This document shows positions 1 to 14,713 of a stretch of 22,230 nt of DNA, piece after piece. Source of the stretch: a virus; IMG/VR virus record IMGVR_UViG_3300002242_000651, positions 1-22,230 of that record. One strand, written 5' to 3'. Under the pieces are notes generated by a model, which saw only the letters and a list, made by a program, of their open reading frames with translations, had not been told where the DNA came from and did no database searches. The number at the start of each line of letters is the position of its first letter. Within the stretch, counting starts at the first letter, position 1. The translations under genes and the position numbers were made by a program.

Positions 1-2
1 GG

Positions 3-233
3 GCTGCGCATAGACTACTTACCAGTATAAACGTGGGCAGAGAAGTAGCAGCGGGTCACGCCTTTCCTCATTTCTCAGAGTGGATTGATGAGAGGTGGGA
101 CGATGAAAAAAAATTGCTAAAATTAAAGGTGAGAGCCAAATCAAACAGGGTTAAGAAAGAATCTGTGTTTAATATTCTCGTCTCAAGTCCAGATCACAGT
201 TACCTACTGGCTAACGGTGCAAACAATTACAAC
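3..233 (+). mobile_element. Intein 1 in terminase, C-terminal end only
   Basis: The segment ends in a typical intein block F/G: FNILVSSPDHSYLLANG followed by ANNYN, then Ser as the first extein residue (234-236). Asn plus a downstream Ser is the expected splice chemistry. The penultimate residue is Tyr rather than the usual His. The extein resumes with SFETMSGRVYYPF, a conserved terminase stretch just before the first nuclease motif, so excision restores a continuous terminase. The N-terminal splicing blocks lie outside the window. Codons 3-150, rich in Lys, Arg and Glu, are not recognisable and could be linker or the end of an endonuclease domain. Confidence 0.78.
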
Positions 234-686
234 TCATTTGAGACGATGAGTGGCCGAGTTTACTACCCTTTTGATAGAAACATTCATGTTGGCGAATACC
301 CAATCAATCCCACATTACCAGTGTGGGTGGGGCAGGATTTCAACATCGACCCCATGAGTGCGGTAATCATGCAGCCTCAACCCAACGGTTGTGTTCACAT
401 CGTTGGTGAGGTGGTCTTGTTTGGCTCGAACACCGAAGAGAGTGTGGACGAGATAGAGCGAAGATATTACAAATACACAAAAGCAATGACCATATATCCA
501 GACCCTGCAGGAAAGCAAAGACAGCATGCCAGAGGCGAGACTGATTTGGATATATTTAGAGAGCGTGGTTTCAAACGTATAAAACACAGAGCAAAACACC
601 CAGCTATTGCGGACAGGGTGAACTGCGTAAATAGAATGTTAAGAACTGCGGATGGTCAGGTTAGATTGTTTGTTGATAAGAGTTGA
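3..686 (+). CDS. terL: Terminase large subunit, nuclease domain (5' partial, with the end of an intein)
   Basis: The frame is open from the window edge to a TGA at 684-686, so the gene starts upstream; the GTG at 33 is probably not a true start. Codons 3-233 are the tail of an intein. From Ser at 234 the protein reads as the RNase H-like nuclease of a phage large terminase, the enzyme that cuts concatemeric DNA during packaging. Visible motifs are SGRVYYPFDR, then VGQDFN with the first catalytic Asp at 336-338, then GEVVLFGSNTEES with a likely second acidic residue near 408, then RVNCVNRMLRTADGQVRLFVDKS. The same frame continues past the TGA with terminase-like sequence (687-770) and resumes after the second intein (1512-1586). 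The gene is therefore one terminase interrupted by a stop, not a natural C-terminus. The portal gene follows directly, as is usual. Confidence 0.85.
   Translation, partial: AAHRLLTSINVGREVAAGHAFPHFSEWIDERWDDEKKLLKLKVRAKSNRVKKESVFNILVSSPDHSYLLANGANNYNSFETMSGRVYYPFDRNIHVGEYPINPTLPVWVGQDFNIDPMSAVIMQPQPNGCVHIVGEVVLFGSNTEESVDEIERRYYKYTKAMTIYPDPAGKQRQHARGETDLDIFRERGFKRIKHRAKHPAIADRVNCVNRMLRTADGQVRLFVDKS
684..686 (+). other. In-frame TGA inside the terminase coding frame
   Basis: The terminase frame reads FVDKS, TGA, then KAVIESFEQTIYKKG without a frame change. Large terminases of this type, as I remember them, typically have a Cys at this position (pattern VDxxCKxLIxxLEQ), so the stop is one base away from TGC or TGT. 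It is a sequencing error, a recent nonsense mutation, or a codon that is read through. TGA is used as a normal stop by at least five other genes here (6461, 8037, 15091, 20500, 21033), so the code is not globally changed. Confidence 0.8.
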
Positions 687-752
687 AAGGCGGTCATTGA
701 GTCCTTTGAGCAGACTATTTACAAAAAGGGTTCAAGAGATATTGACAAGACT

Positions 753-1586
753 ATGAATTTGGAGCACGCCTGCTTTCATGGTGATCAACTTGTTAATGTA
801 AATGGCAATACGATGGCCTTTAAAGATATACCAAAGACAGGCGTAGTAATGTGTCATGATGGCAAATACAGACCTTACATAAACGGTGGAAAAATAAAAA
901 GCTTTGTTCCAATGCTCTTGGTTACTTTATCGAATGGTGTTGCTATAAGATGCACCCACGATCACAAGTTCTTAACTGTCGATGGTTGGGTTGATGCAAT
1001 CAACATGCAAGATAAAACACTATGCAACCAAGAATTATTAGCGGAACTATTCAAGAATACGACGGTAAAAGATATTACTTGTGCGAAAGCCCAAGAGAGA
1101 TTTCGCAGAAGGCTAGAAAAGCTGCGGCAAAATGGCACGGCAGCGAAGATGGTATTGATTGGCACAAGAGTAAATATGAAAGGACAAAAGACGCTCTCCA
1201 CAGTAGAGAAAACTCTTTTGAGTGCGCTCAGTGCGGTGTCTCCTTTAAAACAAGCAGAGTTGAAAAAGCTATGTTCTGCTCGAAAAAATGCAAGGCCGCT
1301 TACAGAAGAGACTCAGGCGTTGACAATGAGAAGAGAGCTTGCGTTGTCTGTGGAGGCGAGTTTGAAATCAACAAGTATTATGCAACAAAAACGTGTGGAA
1401 GAAATTGCGCCTCACGTCTGTCGTATAGACATAGAGCCGCCAAGTGATTCTTACTGCCTAACTGTTCCCGACTTTGGCATGTTTGAGATTGGAGGTGTTG
1501 TTTCGTCCAACTGCGACGCTCTAGGGTATTGTATTGAGATAGAATTTCCTATGAGAAAGGTCGAAATTGCGGGTATTTCCATCTAA
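753..1586 (+). CDS. terL: Terminase large subunit C-terminus carrying a complete intein
   Basis: This is the same gene and frame as the preceding terminase segment; the open frame extends back to 687 (KAVIESFEQTIYKKGSRDID). The ATG at 753 is simply an internal Met of the extein. The first six codons (MNLEHA) are extein, followed by a 247-residue intein and then CDALGYCIEIEFPMRKVEI to the TAA. The joined extein EHA+CDALGY matches the last nuclease motif of large terminases, where the Asp (1515-1517) is the third catalytic acidic residue. Translated alone from 753 the product would be only an intein with 30 extein residues. A functional terminase therefore needs readthrough of the TGA at 684 or correction of that base. 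It ends 89 bases before the portal gene. Confidence 0.85.
   Translation: MNLEHACFHGDQLVNVNGNTMAFKDIPKTGVVMCHDGKYRPYINGGKIKSFVPMLLVTLSNGVAIRCTHDHKFLTVDGWVDAINMQDKTLCNQELLAELFKNTTVKDITCAKAQERFRRRLEKLRQNGTAAKMVLIGTRVNMKGQKTLSTVEKTLLSALSAVSPLKQAELKKLCSARKNARPLTEETQALTMRRELALSVEASLKSTSIMQQKRVEEIAPHVCRIDIEPPSDSYCLTVPDFGMFEIGGVVSSNCDALGYCIEIEFPMRKVEIAGISI
771..1511 (+). mobile_element. Intein 2 in terminase, complete, 247 residues
   Basis: The intein starts at Cys (771-773) in the block A pattern CFHGDQLVNVNG. It has a clear block B, IRCTHDHKFLTVDGW, with the TxxH motif (THDH). It ends with block F/G, DSYCLTVPDFGMFEIGG then VVSSN, followed by Cys +1 (1512-1514). The residue before Asn is Ser instead of His. 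The splicing core is about 82 residues at the N side (to about 1018) and about 37 at the C side (from about 1400). The frame between them encodes low-information Lys/Arg/Leu-rich sequence, because that DNA codes in another frame for an HNH-family protein. Insertion is one residue before the third catalytic Asp of the nuclease, the sort of invariant site inteins favour. Confidence 0.85.
1022..1447 (+). CDS. HNH-endonuclease-family protein nested out of frame in intein 2, catalytic core missing
   Basis: The 141-residue ORF has its own ATG and TGA and lies entirely inside intein 2, one base behind the intein frame. Its N-terminus (IISGTIQEYDGKRYYLC, residues 5-21) resembles the opening of phage HNH homing endonucleases. 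Residues 35-60 carry the WHGSEDGIDWH segment of that family. Residues 68-129 carry two CxxC...CxxC zinc-ribbon-like pairs (C68, C71, C86, C90 and C107, C110, C125, C129) around YRRDSGVDNE. The HNH catalytic block that should lie between residues 21 and 35 is absent, so the protein is shorter than expected and probably not a nuclease. No convincing ribosome binding site precedes the ATG, and an in-frame TAA at 1013 precludes fusion to the upstream intein. It could be a decaying gene or a nuclease-free DNA-binding remnant. Confidence 0.65.
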   Translation: MQPRIISGTIQEYDGKRYYLCESPREISQKARKAAAKWHGSEDGIDWHKSKYERTKDALHSRENSFECAQCGVSFKTSRVEKAMFCSKKCKAAYRRDSGVDNEKRACVVCGGEFEINKYYATKTCGRNCASRLSYRHRAAK

Positions 1587-1595
1587 TTTAAAAAT

Positions 1596-1610
1596 AAGTC
1601 ATCGGTGACT
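1596..1610. promoter_or_regulatory. Dispersed near-palindrome, copy 1
   Basis: AAGTCATCGGTGACT lies 10 bases after the terminase stop, with six of seven pairs matching around the centre. It is followed by AT-rich DNA (TATAAATAA). It shares the consensus AAGTCAYYGGTGACW with five other intergenic sites in this window. Its function is inferred only from position; an operator or late-activator site is most likely. Confidence 0.6.
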
Positions 1611-1631
1611 ATAAATAACTGTTGCCAAGTT

Positions 1632-1646
1632 AAGTCACTGGTGACA
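1632..1646. promoter_or_regulatory. Dispersed near-palindrome, copy 2
   Basis: AAGTCACTGGTGACA lies 36 bases after copy 1, in the gap before the portal gene, so this gap has a tandem pair. A TAAATT hexamer 8 bases downstream is a weak candidate for a -10 box. The portal ATG at 1676 has no clear Shine-Dalgarno sequence. Confidence 0.6.
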
Positions 1647-1675
1647 TAATACTGTAAATTTTTCAATGGTTTGTA

Positions 1676-3235
1676 ATGACACAAGAAGAACTTAAAAGAT
1701 TAATCGCTAGACGACACCCAGAATATAAGGAGTCTCTCCCTCATTGGATGTTTCTGTATGCCTGCTATAAAGGCGGCAGAGAGTGGTTCGCTAAAAATAT
1801 TCATCGTTACATGAAAGAGGGTGATATTGAATTTAAAGATCGAACTGCAAGAGCATACCGATTTAACCACACCAAGGAGGTAGTTGATCTTGTCGATAAG
1901 TATCTATTTAAGTCGGAGATTGATAGAAACGAAAGCGATGCACCCGACTCTGTTGTGGCGTTTTGGAAGAACTCAACCAAAAGCGGTTTGAGTATTAGCC
2001 AATTCAGCAAACAAATGTCGAGAAAGTCATCCATTTATGGGTCGTTGTGGGTCGTTGTGGATAGCTCAATTAGAGCGGTAGATCAAAACACCAGCGTGAG
2101 AGACGTAAAGCAGGCGAAGGGTAAAGTGTATGCCTACACGGTCAACCCTGATCGTGCTTTGGACTTTGCTGTGGATGACGATGGCGAGCTTATTTGGCTT
2201 CTAATATACGAACAAACCAGAGACTCAAAAGACCCCTTCACCTCTACAGGTGATGTAATTGATAGATACCGATTATGGACTAAAACTGAGTGGCTGTTGT
2301 TGGGGGTTAAAAAGAACGAGGGTGAAAACGATTCAAATGGCACGGTTGTCGTTGTTGACAGAGGGTCCCACAATTTGGGTGAAGTGCCAGCTTTTAGAGT
2401 GGATTGTGCAATCAGTGATGAGCAGTGGAAAGCACCGTCACTAATTGGAGACATAGCTTATCTTGATAAAGCGGTAGCCAATTATCTATCTAACCTAGAT
2501 GCCATCATTCAAGATCAAACCTTTTCTCAACTTGCCATGCCAGCTCAAGGATTGATGCCAGGTGAGAGCGGATACGAGAAGATGCTGGATATGGGCACCA
2601 AGCGCATATTTTTATATGACGGGGAGCGTGGCGGTGAACCTAAGTATTTGGCACCAGACCCCAAACAAGCCAGTGTAATTTTGGGTGTTATCTCAAAAAT
2701 TATTAACGAAATATACCACACCGTCGGTATGGCGGGCGAAAGAACCAAACAAGATAACTCTCAAGGTATAGATAACAGCTCTGGCAAGGCTAAAGCGATG
2801 GATTTTGAGAGAGTTAATTCATTATTGGTGTCCAAGGCTAATTCACTGGAAAAAGCCGAAAGAAAGATGGCTCGTCTTGTTGCCTTATGGCACGGCGAAA
2901 CATTGCCAGAAGATGAGATTGTTAAATATTCAAAATCGTTTGATACACGAGGTCTAAGCGACGAATTTCAGATAGCTACGCAGTTAGCACTCGTAGAAGC
3001 CCCTGACGCTATTAGACGCGAACAGATGACGACAGTTACGGAAAAACTATTCCCCGTAATTAGAAAAGAAATAAAAGCCGAAATAGAAGCGGAGCTAATC
3101 AATTGGCCGCCGAAGGTTGGACAAGTTTTACCTCAAAAGTCGCTAGTAGATTCAAAAACCACGACTGCTGGTCAAGTGACTGCTGGTCAAGTGACTGCTG
3201 GTCAAGTGACTGCTGGTCAAGTTAAGAATCACTAA
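1676..3235 (+). CDS. Portal protein
   Basis: This 519-residue protein has the length, position and sequence features of a phage portal, the dodecameric ring at the head vertex through which DNA is packaged and to which the neck attaches. It opens with MTQEELKRLIARRHPEYKE and a helical N-terminal region (KGGREWFAKNIHRYMKEG). It has a central segment SLIGDIAYLDKAVANYLSNL and a long C-terminal helix around KAKAMDFERVNSLLVSKANSLEKAERKMARLVALW (residues 370-405). These fit the DUF4055-like portal group by eye. The gene sits between terminase and scaffold, the usual place. The C-terminus ends in four TAGQV repeats that look dispensable. No good ribosome binding site precedes the ATG, so initiation may be weak or may depend on a start not obvious from sequence. 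Confidence 0.85.
   Translation: MTQEELKRLIARRHPEYKESLPHWMFLYACYKGGREWFAKNIHRYMKEGDIEFKDRTARAYRFNHTKEVVDLVDKYLFKSEIDRNESDAPDSVVAFWKNSTKSGLSISQFSKQMSRKSSIYGSLWVVVDSSIRAVDQNTSVRDVKQAKGKVYAYTVNPDRALDFAVDDDGELIWLLIYEQTRDSKDPFTSTGDVIDRYRLWTKTEWLLLGVKKNEGENDSNGTVVVVDRGSHNLGEVPAFRVDCAISDEQWKAPSLIGDIAYLDKAVANYLSNLDAIIQDQTFSQLAMPAQGLMPGESGYEKMLDMGTKRIFLYDGERGGEPKYLAPDPKQASVILGVISKIINEIYHTVGMAGERTKQDNSQGIDNSSGKAKAMDFERVNSLLVSKANSLEKAERKMARLVALWHGETLPEDEIVKYSKSFDTRGLSDEFQIATQLALVEAPDAIRREQMTTVTEKLFPVIRKEIKAEIEAELINWPPKVGQVLPQKSLVDSKTTTAGQVTAGQVTAGQVTAGQVKNH
3164..3223 (+). repeat. Four tandem 15-base repeats at the portal 3' end
   Basis: Four adjacent copies of ACTGCTGGTCAAGTG (the last ends in GTT) encode TAGQV four times. 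The copies are identical at DNA level, which suggests recent slippage expansion. The unit is a multiple of three, so the frame is kept. Confidence 0.95.
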
Positions 3236-3260
3236 TGATGATGAGGTGAGAAGTTAAGGC

Positions 3261-3280
3261 GCTGCCGAGAGGTAGCTTTT
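3261..3280 (+). terminator. Possible weak intrinsic terminator after the portal gene
   Basis: GCTGCC and GGTAGC pair (one G-T wobble) around a GAGA tetraloop and are followed by four T. The stem is only six pairs and the T run is short, so partial termination or an mRNA-stabilising hairpin is as likely as true termination. Confidence 0.35.
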
Positions 3281-3327
3281 GTAAATAGAGCCGAGAGACA
3301 GGTTCGAGTTTTGATCGAGAGACAGAT
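3264..3327 (+). repeat. Three spaced CGAGAG repeats in the portal-scaffold gap
   Basis: CGAGAG occurs at 3265, 3292 and 3316. The last two copies share the 10-mer CGAGAGACAG. The last copy is flanked by GATC on both sides. The 102-base gap has no gene and lacks the AAGTCA/GGTGAC element found in other gaps. Confidence 0.6.
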
Positions 3328-3337
3328 CAGGTGAAAT

Positions 3338-4216
3338 ATGTTTAAAAATAAATTACTTTTAAGATTGATGAAGTTGATGATGGGCGTTCAAGTTTTGGGC
3401 GTTGGTGAAGAAGGTGGCGGCGGTGAAACCCCTAAGCCAGCGGAACAGGAATCACCCAAGCCAGCGGAACAGGAAACTCCTAAACCGGCAGATGAAGACC
3501 CTAAACCAGCGGAACAGGAAACTCCTAAAGCAGACCCTTCTAAACCGTCTGACAACGAGGCAAAATTGTTGCGGGAGATGATGGAGAAAAAAGGTGCGCT
3601 AAAAGCTGCAAACGAAGAGTTGGCTCAAGTGAAAGAGCAGCTTGGTAAGTTTGATGGTATCGACTTAGAAGAAGTTAAGACTTTGTTGCAAAGTCGCAAA
3701 GATGCAGAAAATCAGGAGCTTGAGAAGAAGGGCGAATGGGACAGACTGAAGGCTAATTTAATTGAACAGCAAACAGCCGAGAAAACTCAACTACAGACTG
3801 AAATTGATCAGTTGAAGGCAGAGTTACAAGGTAGTGGCCAGATGATTGATAAGCTAACAATTGAATCTGCGTTTGAAGCGTCTAGGTATATCGAAGACGA
3901 ATTAACATTAACACCAAGAAAAGCAAAGATCATCTACGGTAGTCATTTCGACTTCGAGGGTGACAAAATCATTGGGTATGACAAACCTAAAGGTGCTACC
4001 GACAGAACAATGCTGATTGATTCCAGTGGTGAGGCATTATCATTCGATGCAGCAATGACTAACATCATTGCCAACGACGTTGATAAAGATCATCTTATTC
4101 GCGCAAAGGTTAAGCCAGGCGCAAATTCTGGAACACAAGACAACCCAACTCCTGCGGCGAAGCCGGTGATGAAGGGTCGGGATAGAATATCAGCCGCTCT
4201 GAGAGAAAACAGCTAA
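3338..4216 (+). CDS. Capsid scaffolding protein
   Basis: This 292-residue protein lies immediately upstream of the major capsid gene, where scaffolds usually are. After a short Met/Leu-rich start it has a Pro/Glu-rich repeat region (residues 32-66). A long charged coiled coil follows (about 70-175, with NEELAQVKEQLGKFDGIDL and KKGEWDRLKANLIEQQ). A more globular part contains LTPRKAKIIYGSHFDFEGD (about 195-215). The C-terminus is basic and helical (RDRISAALREN), typical of scaffold tails that bind the inner capsid surface. The charged coiled coil and the KKGEWDRLK motif match scaffold proteins of the DUF6651 type as I remember them. AGGTG lies seven bases before the ATG and is a reasonable ribosome binding site. 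Confidence 0.75.
   Translation: MFKNKLLLRLMKLMMGVQVLGVGEEGGGGETPKPAEQESPKPAEQETPKPADEDPKPAEQETPKADPSKPSDNEAKLLREMMEKKGALKAANEELAQVKEQLGKFDGIDLEEVKTLLQSRKDAENQELEKKGEWDRLKANLIEQQTAEKTQLQTEIDQLKAELQGSGQMIDKLTIESAFEASRYIEDELTLTPRKAKIIYGSHFDFEGDKIIGYDKPKGATDRTMLIDSSGEALSFDAAMTNIIANDVDKDHLIRAKVKPGANSGTQDNPTPAAKPVMKGRDRISAALRENS
3431..3535 (+). repeat. PKPAEQET repeat tract in the scaffold
   Basis: Codons encode PKPAEQES, PKPAEQET, a degenerate PKPADED, PKPAEQET and a truncated PKAD. DNA copies are nearly identical (CCAGCGGAACAGGAA appears three times), indicating expansion of a 24-base unit. It probably forms a flexible acidic linker. Confidence 0.9.
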
Positions 4217-9355: not shown

Positions 9356-9700
9356 ATGGCCAAAGTTTTAAATGTAGATTCATTAATTAAAGAAAGACAA
9401 GAAATTTCAATAGAGGGTGTCATTTACCCGATGAAGCAGATGTCGGTGGAAGACTTTATCAAATTGACCAAAAAAGCCGAAGCTATCGACAAAAAGAAGA
9501 CAGACACACCATCTGCTCGTATCGAGTTTTTAGTGGACACTATCTTAATCAGCTTCCCGACTTGCAGTGACAAAGTGCTAAAAGCGCAACCAATTGAAGT
9601 GTTAAACGCTATCGTCGAGTTCGCTAAAGATGGCACATTGCCGGAAGATTTGGAAGAAGATTTGGAAGAAGATGAAAAAAAGGACCAAGAGCAAAACTAA
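9356..9700 (+). CDS. Tail assembly chaperone, short form (lambda gpG-like)
   Basis: This 114-residue protein sits between the tube and tape measure genes, as chaperones gpG/gpGT do. It has a beta-rich N-terminus (LIKERQEISIEGVIYPMKQM), a helical middle (VEDFIKLTKKAEAI) and a very acidic C-terminal tail (PEDLEEDLEEDEKKDQEQN). The A_AAA_AAG heptamer near its 3' end (9676-9682) allows some ribosomes to slip back one base and add the downstream frame. The short form is the abundant product. AGGAG at 9342-9346 precedes the ATG at good spacing. Confidence 0.75.
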   Translation: MAKVLNVDSLIKERQEISIEGVIYPMKQMSVEDFIKLTKKAEAIDKKKTDTPSARIEFLVDTILISFPTCSDKVLKAQPIEVLNAIVEFAKDGTLPEDLEEDLEEDEKKDQEQN

Positions 9701-9990
9701 TATCTCTTGATTTTGGGTATTTATTTTGCAGAGTTGCGGCTCATTACGGTATGAGTGATTTGCAGTTATTGGCGATGCCAGTTGAGAGATTTTGGCTTTT
9801 TAATGGCTGCATAGATCGCATGAATGCGGCTGACGATATGAGGCGGCTTAGAATTCACACTTCGCTAAATAATGGTGAGGCGGTTGAGACAGTCGCTAGA
9901 GACTGTGAAGAGGTTACAGGGACGGTCATCGTTAAAGACTTTGAAAGGGATGAAGGGGGTATTAATCGGTTGAAAATGTTAATAAGCTAA
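9356..9990 (+). CDS. Tail assembly chaperone, frameshifted long form (lambda gpGT-like)
   Basis: A -1 shift at A_AAA_AAG (9676-9682) moves ribosomes into a frame that stays open to the TAA at 9988-9990, giving a product of about 211 residues. The added part begins GPRAKLISLDFGYLFCRVAAHYG and carries LLAMPVERFWLFNGCIDRM, resembling the T domain of tail chaperones that contacts the tape measure. In the second frame alone, the first ATG (9751) would drop these residues, so the frameshift is the more plausible way to make it. The product ends 14 bases before the tape measure gene. Confidence 0.75.
9676..9682 (+). promoter_or_regulatory. Programmed -1 frameshift site
   Basis: The codons GAA AAA AAG contain the canonical slippery heptamer A_AAA_AAG in the correct phase for a -1 shift. 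CAAGAG at 9686-9691 can pair with CTCTTG at 9704-9709, a possible downstream stimulatory stem with a 12-base loop, although it begins only three bases after the heptamer. Confidence 0.8.
9751..9990 (+). CDS. C-terminal (T-like) frame of the tail chaperone
   Basis: This open frame of 79 codons from an internal ATG encodes the C-terminal part of the frameshift product (MPVERFWLFNGCIDRMNAADDMRRLR, ending GGINRLKMLIS). The ATG has no ribosome binding site and the reading frame continues 5' of it to the slippery site. I therefore read it as a frameshift extension rather than a separate gene. Confidence 0.6.
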   Translation: MSDLQLLAMPVERFWLFNGCIDRMNAADDMRRLRIHTSLNNGEAVETVARDCEEVTGTVIVKDFERDEGGINRLKMLIS

Positions 9991-13000: not shown

Positions 13001-14693
13001 AATTGGATTGATTGATGACGCCTACAACAGAGAAAGAGCGTCGTTGAAACTTTCAATCGCCGGAGAGAAGAAAAAGTATGATCTTGTTATTAAAAGTGGA
13101 AAAGCCTCTAAAGAGCAATTAAGCAGAGCTAAAAGAGCAATAAAAGCGTTAGATGACTTTAGATTGGCCTCTATCGCTAAGATAGATAAAGCTAATAAGT
13201 CTTCATTTGAGACTATGCTTGACAACTATAAGATCACCATTGACGATATGGATAAATTAGCTGTTAAGTTTACTGACAACTTTGCAAATTCTATAGCCGA
13301 TTTCGTAACTACAGGCAAAAAGACTTTTGGTGATTTTGCGCAGAGTATTATTGCTGATATTGGCAGAATGATGGTAAAGGCGGCAGCAGCCGATCTAATT
13401 AACACATTGATGGGTAGAAAGAAAGGTGATGTAGCTGGTGGTGGCTTTGCTGGTGTGGTCAAGGGGCTACTTAGTGGTCCTAACAAACAGGCGCAAGTTG
13501 CTAAGCAGAAAAAACCCTCAAACACTGAGGCGGCTGTAACCGGTAATACTGAGCAGGAAATCGCCAAACGAAAAGGATTATTTGAGGACTTCTTCAACTT
13601 TAGAAGAGATGGCGATGCAGCAGTTACAGAAAGTAGCAAGGCCAACTTAGCGTCTGTAGCCGATAGCTCTAAAGCCAGCGCCGGTTTAATGAGTGGGGCA
13701 ATGGGTTCATTTGTCGATATGACCATTGGTGGATTTGCGGCGATGGCAATAAATGGCAAACTAAGCATGAAGAGTTTATTAAAGACCGTTTTATCTGCAA
13801 TTGCAGCCATGATAGTGAAGTATCTCGCTTTGGCGGCAGTTAAGGCGATAGCAGGTTTCGCAAGTGGTGGGTCAACAGCTAATGTATCAACGGGTGGAGC
13901 TTCTGGAGCTACCGCCTCATTGCCACTTGGCAACGCAGGGGGTGACATACTAGGCGCTCAAAAAATGTCTACATTTTCAAAAGGATATGCAAAAGGTGGA
14001 GCTGTAAATGTCTCGTCATTTGCGGATGGTGGAGCTATGAAGATTGCAAGCCAGTTAGCTAATGCGCCTTTCATGAGCGAAATGGATATGAAGCGAGGGG
14101 GCGTCAAAAAGTCACCTCACGTTGCGCTATTTGCAGAGTCAACCATGCCAGAAGCGTTTATCCCAATGAAAGATGGCAAGAATATTCCATTAATGTTATC
14201 GCAAGATTCAAGCGGTAAAACCGTTGGTAAAATACCATTGCCAAGTGGAGAGACTTTGCCAGCGAAGGTGATTAGCGATACAACTAGACAAGTTAGCACG
14301 TTTGCGAATGGGGGAGCGATGAACAACATAAAAACCCCATCTTCTCACTCAAATGAGTTAGCTGTCGATATTGCAGGATACGCAAGCATGATTGAAGCCA
14401 TAGACGGCGTTAGAAAGGCAGTTGAGAGTATAAATCCTATCAATACACAAGCTATCACAAAGTCAACAAGATCGAACCCACTTAATAATGGTAAAAATGC
14501 GCCGCTAAGTTCACAGACAAAAGGCGATAGTAATGTATCTATAACTATAAATGTGGCTGATACAGGCAATACGAAATCGAAAGGGGGAAATGGCAATGAT
14601 AGAAAATTTTGGACTGGCATATCTGGCAAAGTTAAAAGCATGATTACGCAAGAAATCGTCAATGAAAAAAGACCTGGAGGCCTGTTGTCCTAA
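10005..14693 (+). CDS. Tape measure protein
   Basis: This is the longest gene (1562 residues), lying after the chaperones as expected. Its length sets tail length and it is ejected with the DNA. Residues 70-270 are the conserved tape measure domain, with the signature MASKGVVSMEELRQQLGEAV (181-200) and MGMTMGDMVKAISNGRVKAI. A hydrophobic, helix-forming stretch (about 404-436, GGPLNIIIGILTAAAAAWVFF) may insert in a membrane. Residues 440-1060 are mostly charged coiled coil. Residues about 1070-1136 form the lambda-type C-terminal block (FANSIADFVTTGKKTFGDFA). Alanine-rich hydrophobic segments and GGA-type repeats follow (FADGGAMK, FANGGAMN). The block ESTMPEAFIPMKDGKNIPL near 1370-1400 is a typical terminal motif. 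AGGTG precedes the ATG by nine bases. Confidence 0.92.
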   Translation: MSVGDIVVRLELNDGQFTARMNKAGKTISTFSSTIDRLDKRVSKVEKGLVGFIPKLRDIAIVAASARVVIHGLSDTIGGFTDGIIKSNAEIERLTVLLQGISKAPLESGKIKEAGNNIKFLFDMAQRAPFSIKELSNSFVKMKAAGIEGVDGKIQSLTDSIARFGGDEQTLHRATIAIQQMASKGVVSMEELRQQLGEAVPNAMNLMADGMGMTMGDMVKAISNGRVKAIPAINAMMEQMNATMSGSSERMMQTWNGLMSRLSTSWILLQKQIGDAGFFEGAKAALTDLNSFLNSDQALAYGQAIGVAMRDITLNIVYAIKAVAKYSTEIGRAIKATVILVASIKAIATVTSIVALATTKIQAFSKAWAATATVARVASTGFGAVTTSVAGASTAATVAGASMSRLGLILSTLGGPLNIIIGILTAAAAAWVFFGNKGSEAYEKIKKSRKGLTEFEQFNIKLKTKVEIDNAQSSIDSVIKDINAKKKELERETLRIKISPLVTGLDVNIFKKWKERQLKDIADLEKSVAEATKNNESDRLAMLQRQAAREANLIETRTRKDLARYNQRYTSEIALAREARDKILRDTTKSDDDYSRAKKIFGDKVSHLLRTQYESQRIDLKSHIADMNTSLQSLSDKNITIKAILSTKDSLESARNMREKIIQNMAKIEIAINKSTGDDVLGLKSKLAKSKKRLIKVNNSIKRTAALIDHLKGGAKVDGESIIKLDKLLIQLPKANKLLSEIEGNIDNLANGRPPIDSKKVGEGTTALEKMTTVLNSISDRNAGLKDAVNGGNSSIGRQLAKMKRLYLATGETAAGLKALNKAENLLAQNRGFEATLEVAKEMEILDGKISRLKANLNEGDPHASLIYKIKTLFDKQIITDETMTDFTNKINQIKALTEAKDSAKREKWIKQQTAKSAVELLRVQAETASSSIAMEKYAVDARIRQLNRLADAKHLSESQRKTFVGDNTELFKKTQLIKLEKQSANEILAIQNRTAKARIGLIDDAYNRERASLKLSIAGEKKKYDLVIKSGKASKEQLSRAKRAIKALDDFRLASIAKIDKANKSSFETMLDNYKITIDDMDKLAVKFTDNFANSIADFVTTGKKTFGDFAQSIIADIGRMMVKAAAADLINTLMGRKKGDVAGGGFAGVVKGLLSGPNKQAQVAKQKKPSNTEAAVTGNTEQEIAKRKGLFEDFFNFRRDGDAAVTESSKANLASVADSSKASAGLMSGAMGSFVDMTIGGFAAMAINGKLSMKSLLKTVLSAIAAMIVKYLALAAVKAIAGFASGGSTANVSTGGASGATASLPLGNAGGDILGAQKMSTFSKGYAKGGAVNVSSFADGGAMKIASQLANAPFMSEMDMKRGGVKKSPHVALFAESTMPEAFIPMKDGKNIPLMLSQDSSGKTVGKIPLPSGETLPAKVISDTTRQVSTFANGGAMNNIKTPSSHSNELAVDIAGYASMIEAIDGVRKAVESINPINTQAITKSTRSNPLNNGKNAPLSSQTKGDSNVSITINVADTGNTKSKGGNGNDRKFWTGISGKVKSMITQEIVNEKRPGGLLS
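11167..11211 (+). repeat. 18-base direct repeat in the tape measure gene
   Basis: CGGTAGCCGGAGCATCCA occurs at 11167-11184 and 11194-11211, a 27-base offset. It encodes VAGAS twice, in an Ala/Thr-rich linker just before the hydrophobic segment. It looks like a small in-frame duplication. Confidence 0.85.
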
Positions 14694-14698
14694 AAAAT

Positions 14699-14713
14699 AA
14701 GTCATCGGTGACA
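14699..14713. promoter_or_regulatory. Dispersed near-palindrome, copy 6, with an extended -10-like box downstream
   Basis: AAGTCATCGGTGACA lies between the tape measure and tail tip genes. Eight bases downstream is TACAAT (14722-14727) preceded by TG at 14719-14720, an extended -10 arrangement (TGnTACAAT). This is the best promoter candidate among the six sites; the palindrome would overlap the -35 region. Confidence 0.6.

What the first reader, a model, noticed from the sequence alone, without database searches (positions are those of the whole stretch)
684..686. In-frame TGA in the terminase where homologs appear to have cysteine
The frame reads VDKS-TGA-KAVIESFEQT with no frame change and clear terminase sequence on both sides. 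The usual residue appears to be Cys, so one base change explains it. Without readthrough the third catalytic Asp and all of intein 2 would not be attached. Options are sequencing error, an inactivating mutation in a prophage, or deliberate readthrough.
Basis: partly seen in the sequence, partly recalled or inferred. Interest (0 to 1): 0.55.

Follow-up and report, generated by a model that had tools for sequence, protein, structure and literature searches.

The report
Broken terminase with a frame-hidden endonuclease
A viral DNA-packaging gene in this fragment is cut by one stop codon that looks like an ordinary error or mutation, while the self-splicing insert just after it holds the remains of a second gene written in a shifted reading frame, an arrangement found intact in many other viral records.

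Summary
The TGA at 684-686 is real in the given sequence: in frame, with clear terminase large subunit (TerL) sequence on both sides. At this codon, 96 of 99 distinct related TerL sequences have Cys and 3 have Ala; none has TGA, and none of 131 loci with the domain has an in-frame stop in it. Nothing supports recoding: no other in-frame TGA in 19 ORFs, five of which end in TGA, no hairpin after the UGA, no good restart. It is best read as a one-base lesion: consensus error, or recent mutation in a phage-plasmid-like genome. Reads would decide. Alone it is ordinary.

The surroundings are more interesting. Intein 2, downstream, contains an HNH-endonuclease remnant in a shifted frame (1022-1447) overlapping the open intein frame. 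In 71 of 105 loci of this HNH family the HNH gene lies wholly inside one long stop-free ORF, always in the same relative frame; all 36 sampled match an intein family. The shifted HNH frame is the conserved one. The window's copy has lost its catalytic core. I found no paper on this arrangement in splicing inteins (ten searches, listed in the full report).

The parts
3..233 (+). C-terminal part of intein 1 (cut by the record start), ending ...HSYLLANGANNYN before Ser+1
   Evidence: Frame and block-F/G-like end seen (motif reading recalled); intein-free relatives read ...QEFEA|SFETM across this point
234..683 (+). TerL extein, nuclease domain, first part
   Evidence: phrog_10250 E 3e-28; 131 loci hold the aligned domain
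684..686 (+). In-frame TGA where relatives have Cys (96 of 99 distinct) or Ala (3 of 99)
687..770 (+). TerL extein, second part, up to ...NLEHA before intein 2
771..1511 (+). Intein 2 in the TerL frame: N-terminal Hint part about 771-1034, low-confidence spacer about 1035-1397, C-terminal Hint part about 1398-1511
   Evidence: Pfam Intein_splicing E 2e-5, below its curated cut-off; AlphaFold pLDDT mostly 84-97 at both ends and 35-65 in the spacer; Foldseek hits are inteins
1022..1447 (+). HNH-family ORF in a frame shifted from the intein frame (offset 2); a remnant lacking the HNH catalytic core, with the zinc-ribbon-like half kept
   Evidence: phrog_15471 E 5e-25; alignments A1, A5; no Pfam HNH match; anti-SD energy only -0.7 at ATG 1022
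1512..1586 (+). TerL C-extein CDALGYCIEIEFPMRKVEIAGISI and its TAA stop
1676..3235 (+). Portal gene, intact, next downstream
   Evidence: phrog_145 E 8e-103

Best explanation
The TGA is a one-base lesion in an otherwise intact TerL gene, not a recoding signal. It is either a consensus error in a metagenome contig or a recent real nonsense mutation in one copy of a temperate, phage-plasmid-like genome; I hold the two about equally likely. If it is real, translation stops before intein 2 and the third catalytic Asp, so no working terminase is made from this copy (inferred). The stop lies upstream of an intein of a recurrent kind: its splicing domains are in the TerL frame, while an HNH homing endonuclease gene lies inside it in a shifted, overlapping frame. 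In intact members the ribosome reading TerL passes a stop-free spacer and the spliced terminase forms, while the HNH is translated separately from its own start and would copy the intein into intein-free TerL genes (inferred from anatomy and conservation; not tested). In this window the HNH has lost its catalytic core, so the intein here could splice but not home.
For: Codon: 0 TGA among 99 distinct relatives, no stop in the domain of 131 loci. Code: TGG 61, TGC+TGT 24 and no other in-frame TGA in 19 ORFs, five of which end in TGA. No hairpin after UGA: -3.7 kcal/mol against a shuffle mean of -7.19, 189 of 200 shuffles as good or better; no Rfam match at E<=1 in 1-3400. Cys not essential: Ala in 3 of 99. 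The frame stays open for 299 codons beyond the stop. Nested HNH: in 71 of 105 loci inside one long ORF, all 71 in the same relative frame; 36 of 36 sampled host ORFs match Intein_splicing, 25 of 36 Terminase_3; 36 of 37 shifted-frame proteins match HNH_3; in 12 of 12 informative pairs (14 tried) substitutions peak at HNH codon position 3 and HNH-frame identity exceeds TerL-frame identity; the best start has anti-SD energy <= -6 in 39% of 61 against 20% of matched controls.
Against: The other ORFs look intact, which speaks against a heavily decayed prophage and would also be expected of a phage that tolerates the TGA. The openness of the TerL frame over the window's own HNH remnant is weak evidence by itself (67.9% of synonymous shuffles are also open; 7.8% when recoded with the window's codon usage). 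Shine-Dalgarno enrichment is moderate, and the window's own ATG has none.
Confidence: 0.85

Rival explanations
1. Deliberate readthrough: a near-cognate or suppressor tRNA reads this UGA often enough to make the few TerL molecules a phage needs.
For: The frame continues intact for 299 codons with a Hint domain and the C-extein.
Against: 0 of 99 distinct relatives have the stop; no other in-frame TGA in 19 ORFs; no stable structure right after the stop.
Confidence: 0.05
2. Selenocysteine: UGA replaces a conserved Cys through a bacterial SECIS element.
For: Cys in 96 of 99 distinct relatives is the classic pattern (pattern recalled).
Against: The 47 bases from UGA on fold worse than shuffles (z 1.50); nothing in Rfam at E<=1; Ala occurs at the site in 3 of 99, so no redox role is needed. 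The host and its selenocysteine genes are unknown.
Confidence: 0.02
3. The gene is truly in two pieces: the downstream part restarts at ATG 753 and the two products work together.
For: ATG 753 lies in frame just before intein 2.
Against: Anti-SD energy at ATG 753 is only -2.9, at TTG 759 -0.7; the spliced downstream product would be about 30 residues (from the sequence); no relative has a stop here.
Confidence: 0.03
4. For the nested HNH: the shifted-frame ORF is a chance or relic by-product, for instance of frameshifts in a formerly in-frame endonuclease domain.
For: The window's own copy is a relic, and openness of one frame over this one gene is not improbable.
Against: HNH_3 is matched by 36 of 37 scanned; conservation follows the shifted frame in 12 of 12 informative pairs; none of 105 HNH ORFs is fused in frame to a TerL-length ORF (longest 368 aa).
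Confidence: 0.05

Closest known systems
SSU5-type phage and phage-plasmid terminase large subunit
   Same: 65.5% identity to Salmonella phage SSU5 TerL and 73.8% to a TerL on Acinetobacter plasmid pA1296_1; portal follows TerL there too.
   Different: The A. baumannii copy has a Cys codon (TGT) and reads as one 414-aa protein; the window has two inteins and the stop.
[quoted passage not shown] abstract, passages and sections 17-19 read)
   Same: An HNH gene in a shifted frame inside an insertion that stays open in the host gene's frame.
   Different: The paper reports no detectable splicing domain there; here the host frame encodes intein splicing (Hint) domains on both sides of the HNH, in a terminase.
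TerL inteins of mycobacteriophages (PMC5050341; passages read)
   Same: Inteins in phage TerL, splicing-competent, some with an active endonuclease.
   Different: Those lie in the ATPase domain; here the site is at the nuclease-domain Asp, and the endonuclease is in another frame.
Split inteins with a free-standing endonuclease gene between the halves ('fractured genes', Dassa et al. 2009, recalled; not held)
   Same: The endonuclease is a separate ORF between intein halves. Brochothrix phage BL3 and nine other loci here have the intein C-half downstream of the HNH in a frame that is stopped in between.
   Different: In the nested class the intein frame is unbroken, so no trans-splicing is needed.

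Membership tests
Terminase large subunit (SSU5-like) | Sequence match to TerL families across the domain | tested here: met
   phrog_10250 E 3e-28; 789 phage records match
Terminase large subunit (SSU5-like) | Uninterrupted reading frame to the third catalytic Asp | tested here: not met
   TGA at 684-686
Intein (splicing element), intein 2 | Cys1, TxxH block, C-terminal Asn followed by Cys; Hint fold (features recalled) | tested here: met
   Cys codon at 771, CTHDH...SSN|C; Hint model and Foldseek intein hits; penultimate residue is Ser, as in several nested relatives
Intein (splicing element), intein 2 | Protein splicing activity | not testable with these tools
   needs expression
HNH homing endonuclease | HNH catalytic core | tested here: not met
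   about 60 residues with the core are missing in the window copy (A5); no Pfam HNH match, while 36 of 37 in A3 match HNH_3
HNH homing endonuclease | Paired Cys motifs (zinc-ribbon-like) of this family | tested here: met
   invariant Cys columns in A1, A3, A5
Inteins with a shifted-frame nested HNH gene (class described here) | HNH-family ORF inside the intein in the same relative frame, intein frame open | tested here: met
   offset 2 to the TerL frame, as in the 71 loci
ShiLan-type out-of-frame HNH insertion | No splicing domain in the host frame | tested here: not met
   Hint domains present
Selenoprotein | Hairpin (SECIS) just after UGA | tested here: not met
   z 1.50, weaker than shuffles
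Selenoprotein | Host selenocysteine machinery | not testable with these tools
   host unknown; the record is a virus fragment
UGA-reassigned genetic code | UGA used as sense in many genes | tested here: not met
   none in 19 ORFs; five ORFs end in TGA

The most novel reading that the evidence does not exclude
Phage terminase inteins at the nuclease-domain Asp site form a widespread class whose homing endonuclease is not a domain of the intein but a separate HNH gene written in a shifted frame over the intein's spacer and translated from its own start; the intein frame there is only kept free of stops. The window is a decayed member, in a terminase that also carries a stop.
Probability: 0.8. 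Interest if true: 0.7.

Novelty: new variant of a known kind. Interest (0 to 1): 0.5.

Why it matters
The stop codon alone matters only for annotation. The nested arrangement, if expressed, separates splicing and homing into two frames of the same DNA: the endonuclease can be made without splicing, could move in and out of inteins as a cassette, and is overlooked when the intein frame alone is annotated, as in Tetrasphaera phage TJE1, Acinetobacter phage Highwayman and a Halobacterium plasmid, where only TerL or a Hint protein is listed there. It gives a testable link between free-standing endonuclease genes, split inteins and fused inteins.

Tried and rejected
Alternative code, selenocysteine, readthrough and restart were tested and rejected. 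A search for other records of the same local sequence with any codon at the site found none. Searching intein 2 as one protein in viral contigs found nothing, probably because the spacer is not conserved. A major-capsid search for near-identical phages found at best 79% identity, so no close sister was available to test the stop. The shuffle test on single nested genes was informative for Highwayman only (0.0002). The pooled test (0 stops against 105.8 expected in 60 distinct nested loci) is circular, because 'nested' is defined by openness; the 27 non-spanning loci have 141 against 135.3. The Foldseek search with the HNH model gave no significant hit; the top one was I-HmuI at E 0.97. Tree: the nested label needs 8 changes on the tree of 86 HNH proteins and starred branches force at least 2, so a single origin of nesting is not supported; the labels in that tree were mine. 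Rows dropped: L086, L187 and L090 from the tree; loci with stops, N or duplicate DNA from the shuffle test; two spanning loci (L118, L155) failed my C-end regex but show intein ends by eye. The family survey was seeded by A1, whose first row is a nested HNH, and only the best 80 of 202 viral loci were kept, so 71 of 105 is not an unbiased frequency. The host-ORF Pfam scan used 36 of the 71 loci.

Full report
Observation. The window is a whole IMG/VR record, 22,230 bases, given as a virus record that may be a fragment. Frame 3..1586 encodes the C-terminal part of a terminase large subunit: the tail of intein 1 (3-233), an extein with TGA at 684-686, intein 2 (771-1511) and a C-extein to TAA 1584-1586. 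The part before the stop matches phrog_10250 at 3e-28.

Is Cys usual? In the first 80 related loci the codon was TGC 67, TGT 10, GCA 2, GCG 1. With further loci, 156 were examined, 131 hold the domain and 99 are distinct in DNA: TGC 77, TGT 19, GCA 2, GCG 1, TGA 0, and no in-frame stop in any of the 131. The stop is therefore exceptional, and Cys is common but not required.

Recoding tests. Nineteen other ORFs in the record have no in-frame TGA; five end in TGA; Trp is TGG 61 times. The bases right after UGA fold worse than shuffles (z 1.50); a longer 141-base stretch has z -1.76 with 11 of 200 shuffles as good, which I do not count as a signal. No Rfam family at E<=1 in 1-3400. Restart codons in the frame after the stop are poor: ATG 753 at -2.9 and TTG 759 at -0.7 kcal/mol to the anti-SD. 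No other viral record has this local sequence with any codon at the site. A lesion is left. Relatives are SSU5-type phages (TerL 65.5%, portal 53.8%), and 940 plasmid records carry a related TerL, so a temperate phage-plasmid with a damaged packaging gene is plausible; so is an error 684 bases from the end of a contig. I cannot separate them.

What lies downstream. In the TerL frame intein 2 has Cys1, a TxxH block and an Asn|Cys end. Its AlphaFold model is confident at both ends and low in most of the middle (residues 89-106, 122-186 and 206-209 below 50); its best structural matches are inteins. Pfam Intein_splicing matches at 2e-5, below the curated cut-off. The middle overlaps an ORF in another frame, 1022-1447, that matches HNH endonuclease phrog_15471 at 5e-25.

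A class. The same overlap, in the same relative frame, is in TerL of Tetrasphaera phage TJE1 and Acinetobacter phage Highwayman and in a Hint protein of a Halobacterium plasmid, with complete HNH ORFs. Of 105 loci with this HNH family, 71 have the HNH wholly inside one long ORF, each time in the frame +1 to the HNH; none in the other frame, and none of the 105 is fused in frame to a TerL-length ORF. Some of the 71 are near-copies: 60 differ in their last 60 residues. The ends of these ORFs around the HNH read as intein ends before C-(I)DA-RY by eye, and 69 of the 71 pass a regex for the C end. Of 36 sampled, 36 match Intein_splicing, 25 Terminase_3, 21 Terminase_6N. Of 37 shifted-frame proteins (window included) 36 match HNH_3; the window's alone had none.

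Which frame is constrained? Of 14 pairs of nested loci, two had at most one difference; in the other 12 of 12 the differences peak at HNH codon position 3 and HNH-frame amino-acid identity exceeds TerL-frame identity. The pairs were chosen by me and aligned by HNH protein, which leans to that frame only at gaps. So the HNH is the gene under selection in the overlap and the TerL frame is a stop-free spacer. The +1 frame of these genes is poor in stops by composition (shuffle means 0.3-4.7 in the four nested genes, against 6.8-24.5 in the +2 frame), which may explain why only one frame is used (inference).

Expression. Among 62 distinct nested loci, 61 have a start near the HNH; the best start pairs with the anti-SD at <= -6 kcal/mol in 39%, against 20% for matched control positions. 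This supports separate translation for part of the set.

The window's copy. A near relative by intein sequence is L186, in a Methyloceanibacter MAG (32% and 31% identity in two blocks), whose HNH is intact; the window lacks about 60 residues including the HNH core, a loss that keeps both frames, and its ATG has no SD (-0.7). In the tree of 86 HNH proteins it sits with L186 and free-standing Yuavirus HNH genes, weakly (87/83). The intein can probably splice but not home. None of the 80 TerL relatives listed shows an insertion at the intein 2 site, so this intein is sporadic in its clade.

Related arrangement. Eleven loci have the intein C-half in the +1 frame without a spanning ORF; ten of these frames are stopped between the halves (L114 is merely cut by the contig end), and two more loci have a C-half motif in the +2 frame. 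Brochothrix phage BL3, with gp3 as the C-half, is one of the ten. This resembles split inteins with a free endonuclease gene.

Literature. Ten searches found the ShiLan paper (PMC11855218; abstract, passages, sections 17-19), a genome note that reports one out-of-frame HNH in a methylase (PMC12613952, passages) and mycobacteriophage TerL inteins in the ATPase domain (PMC5050341, passages), but no out-of-frame endonuclease inside a splicing intein. PMC10448857 (passages) describes phage endonuclease genes with in-frame deletions and frameshifts. The library holds open-licence papers only, so this is not proof of novelty.

Verdict. The stop codon is real in the sequence and most likely an ordinary lesion or error: interest about 0.1 alone. 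The shifted-frame endonuclease in terminase inteins lifts the overall interest to 0.5.

Noticed in passing
window 1022-1447; L091, L092, L093 and most of L095-L178, L186: HNH endonuclease gene nested in a shifted frame inside TerL inteins; 71 of 105 loci.
   Followed up: yes
L090, L135, L161, L172, L173, L180-L184: Same HNH family between intein halves whose frame is stopped, as in split inteins.
   Followed up: partly
window 1596, 1632, 4245, 7201, 9276, 14699: Repeated, partly palindromic AAGTCAYYGGTGAC-like sites, mostly between genes: 11 strand matches against 0.42 expected; operator-like.
   Followed up: no
window 9674-9990: A run of A near the end of the ORF 9356-9700 and an open frame 9676-9990 before the tape measure gene: looks like a programmed frameshift of tail assembly chaperones (reading recalled).
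   Followed up: no
window 3163-3222: Four exact 15-base repeats at the 3' end of the portal gene.
   Followed up: no
window 1590-1609 and 14693-14712: Exact 20-base repeat, containing one of the operator-like sites.
   Followed up: partly
L121, L131: HNH ORFs of 313 aa, longer than most; a second weak match of the window HNH to L121 suggests a repeated zinc-ribbon part.
   Followed up: no
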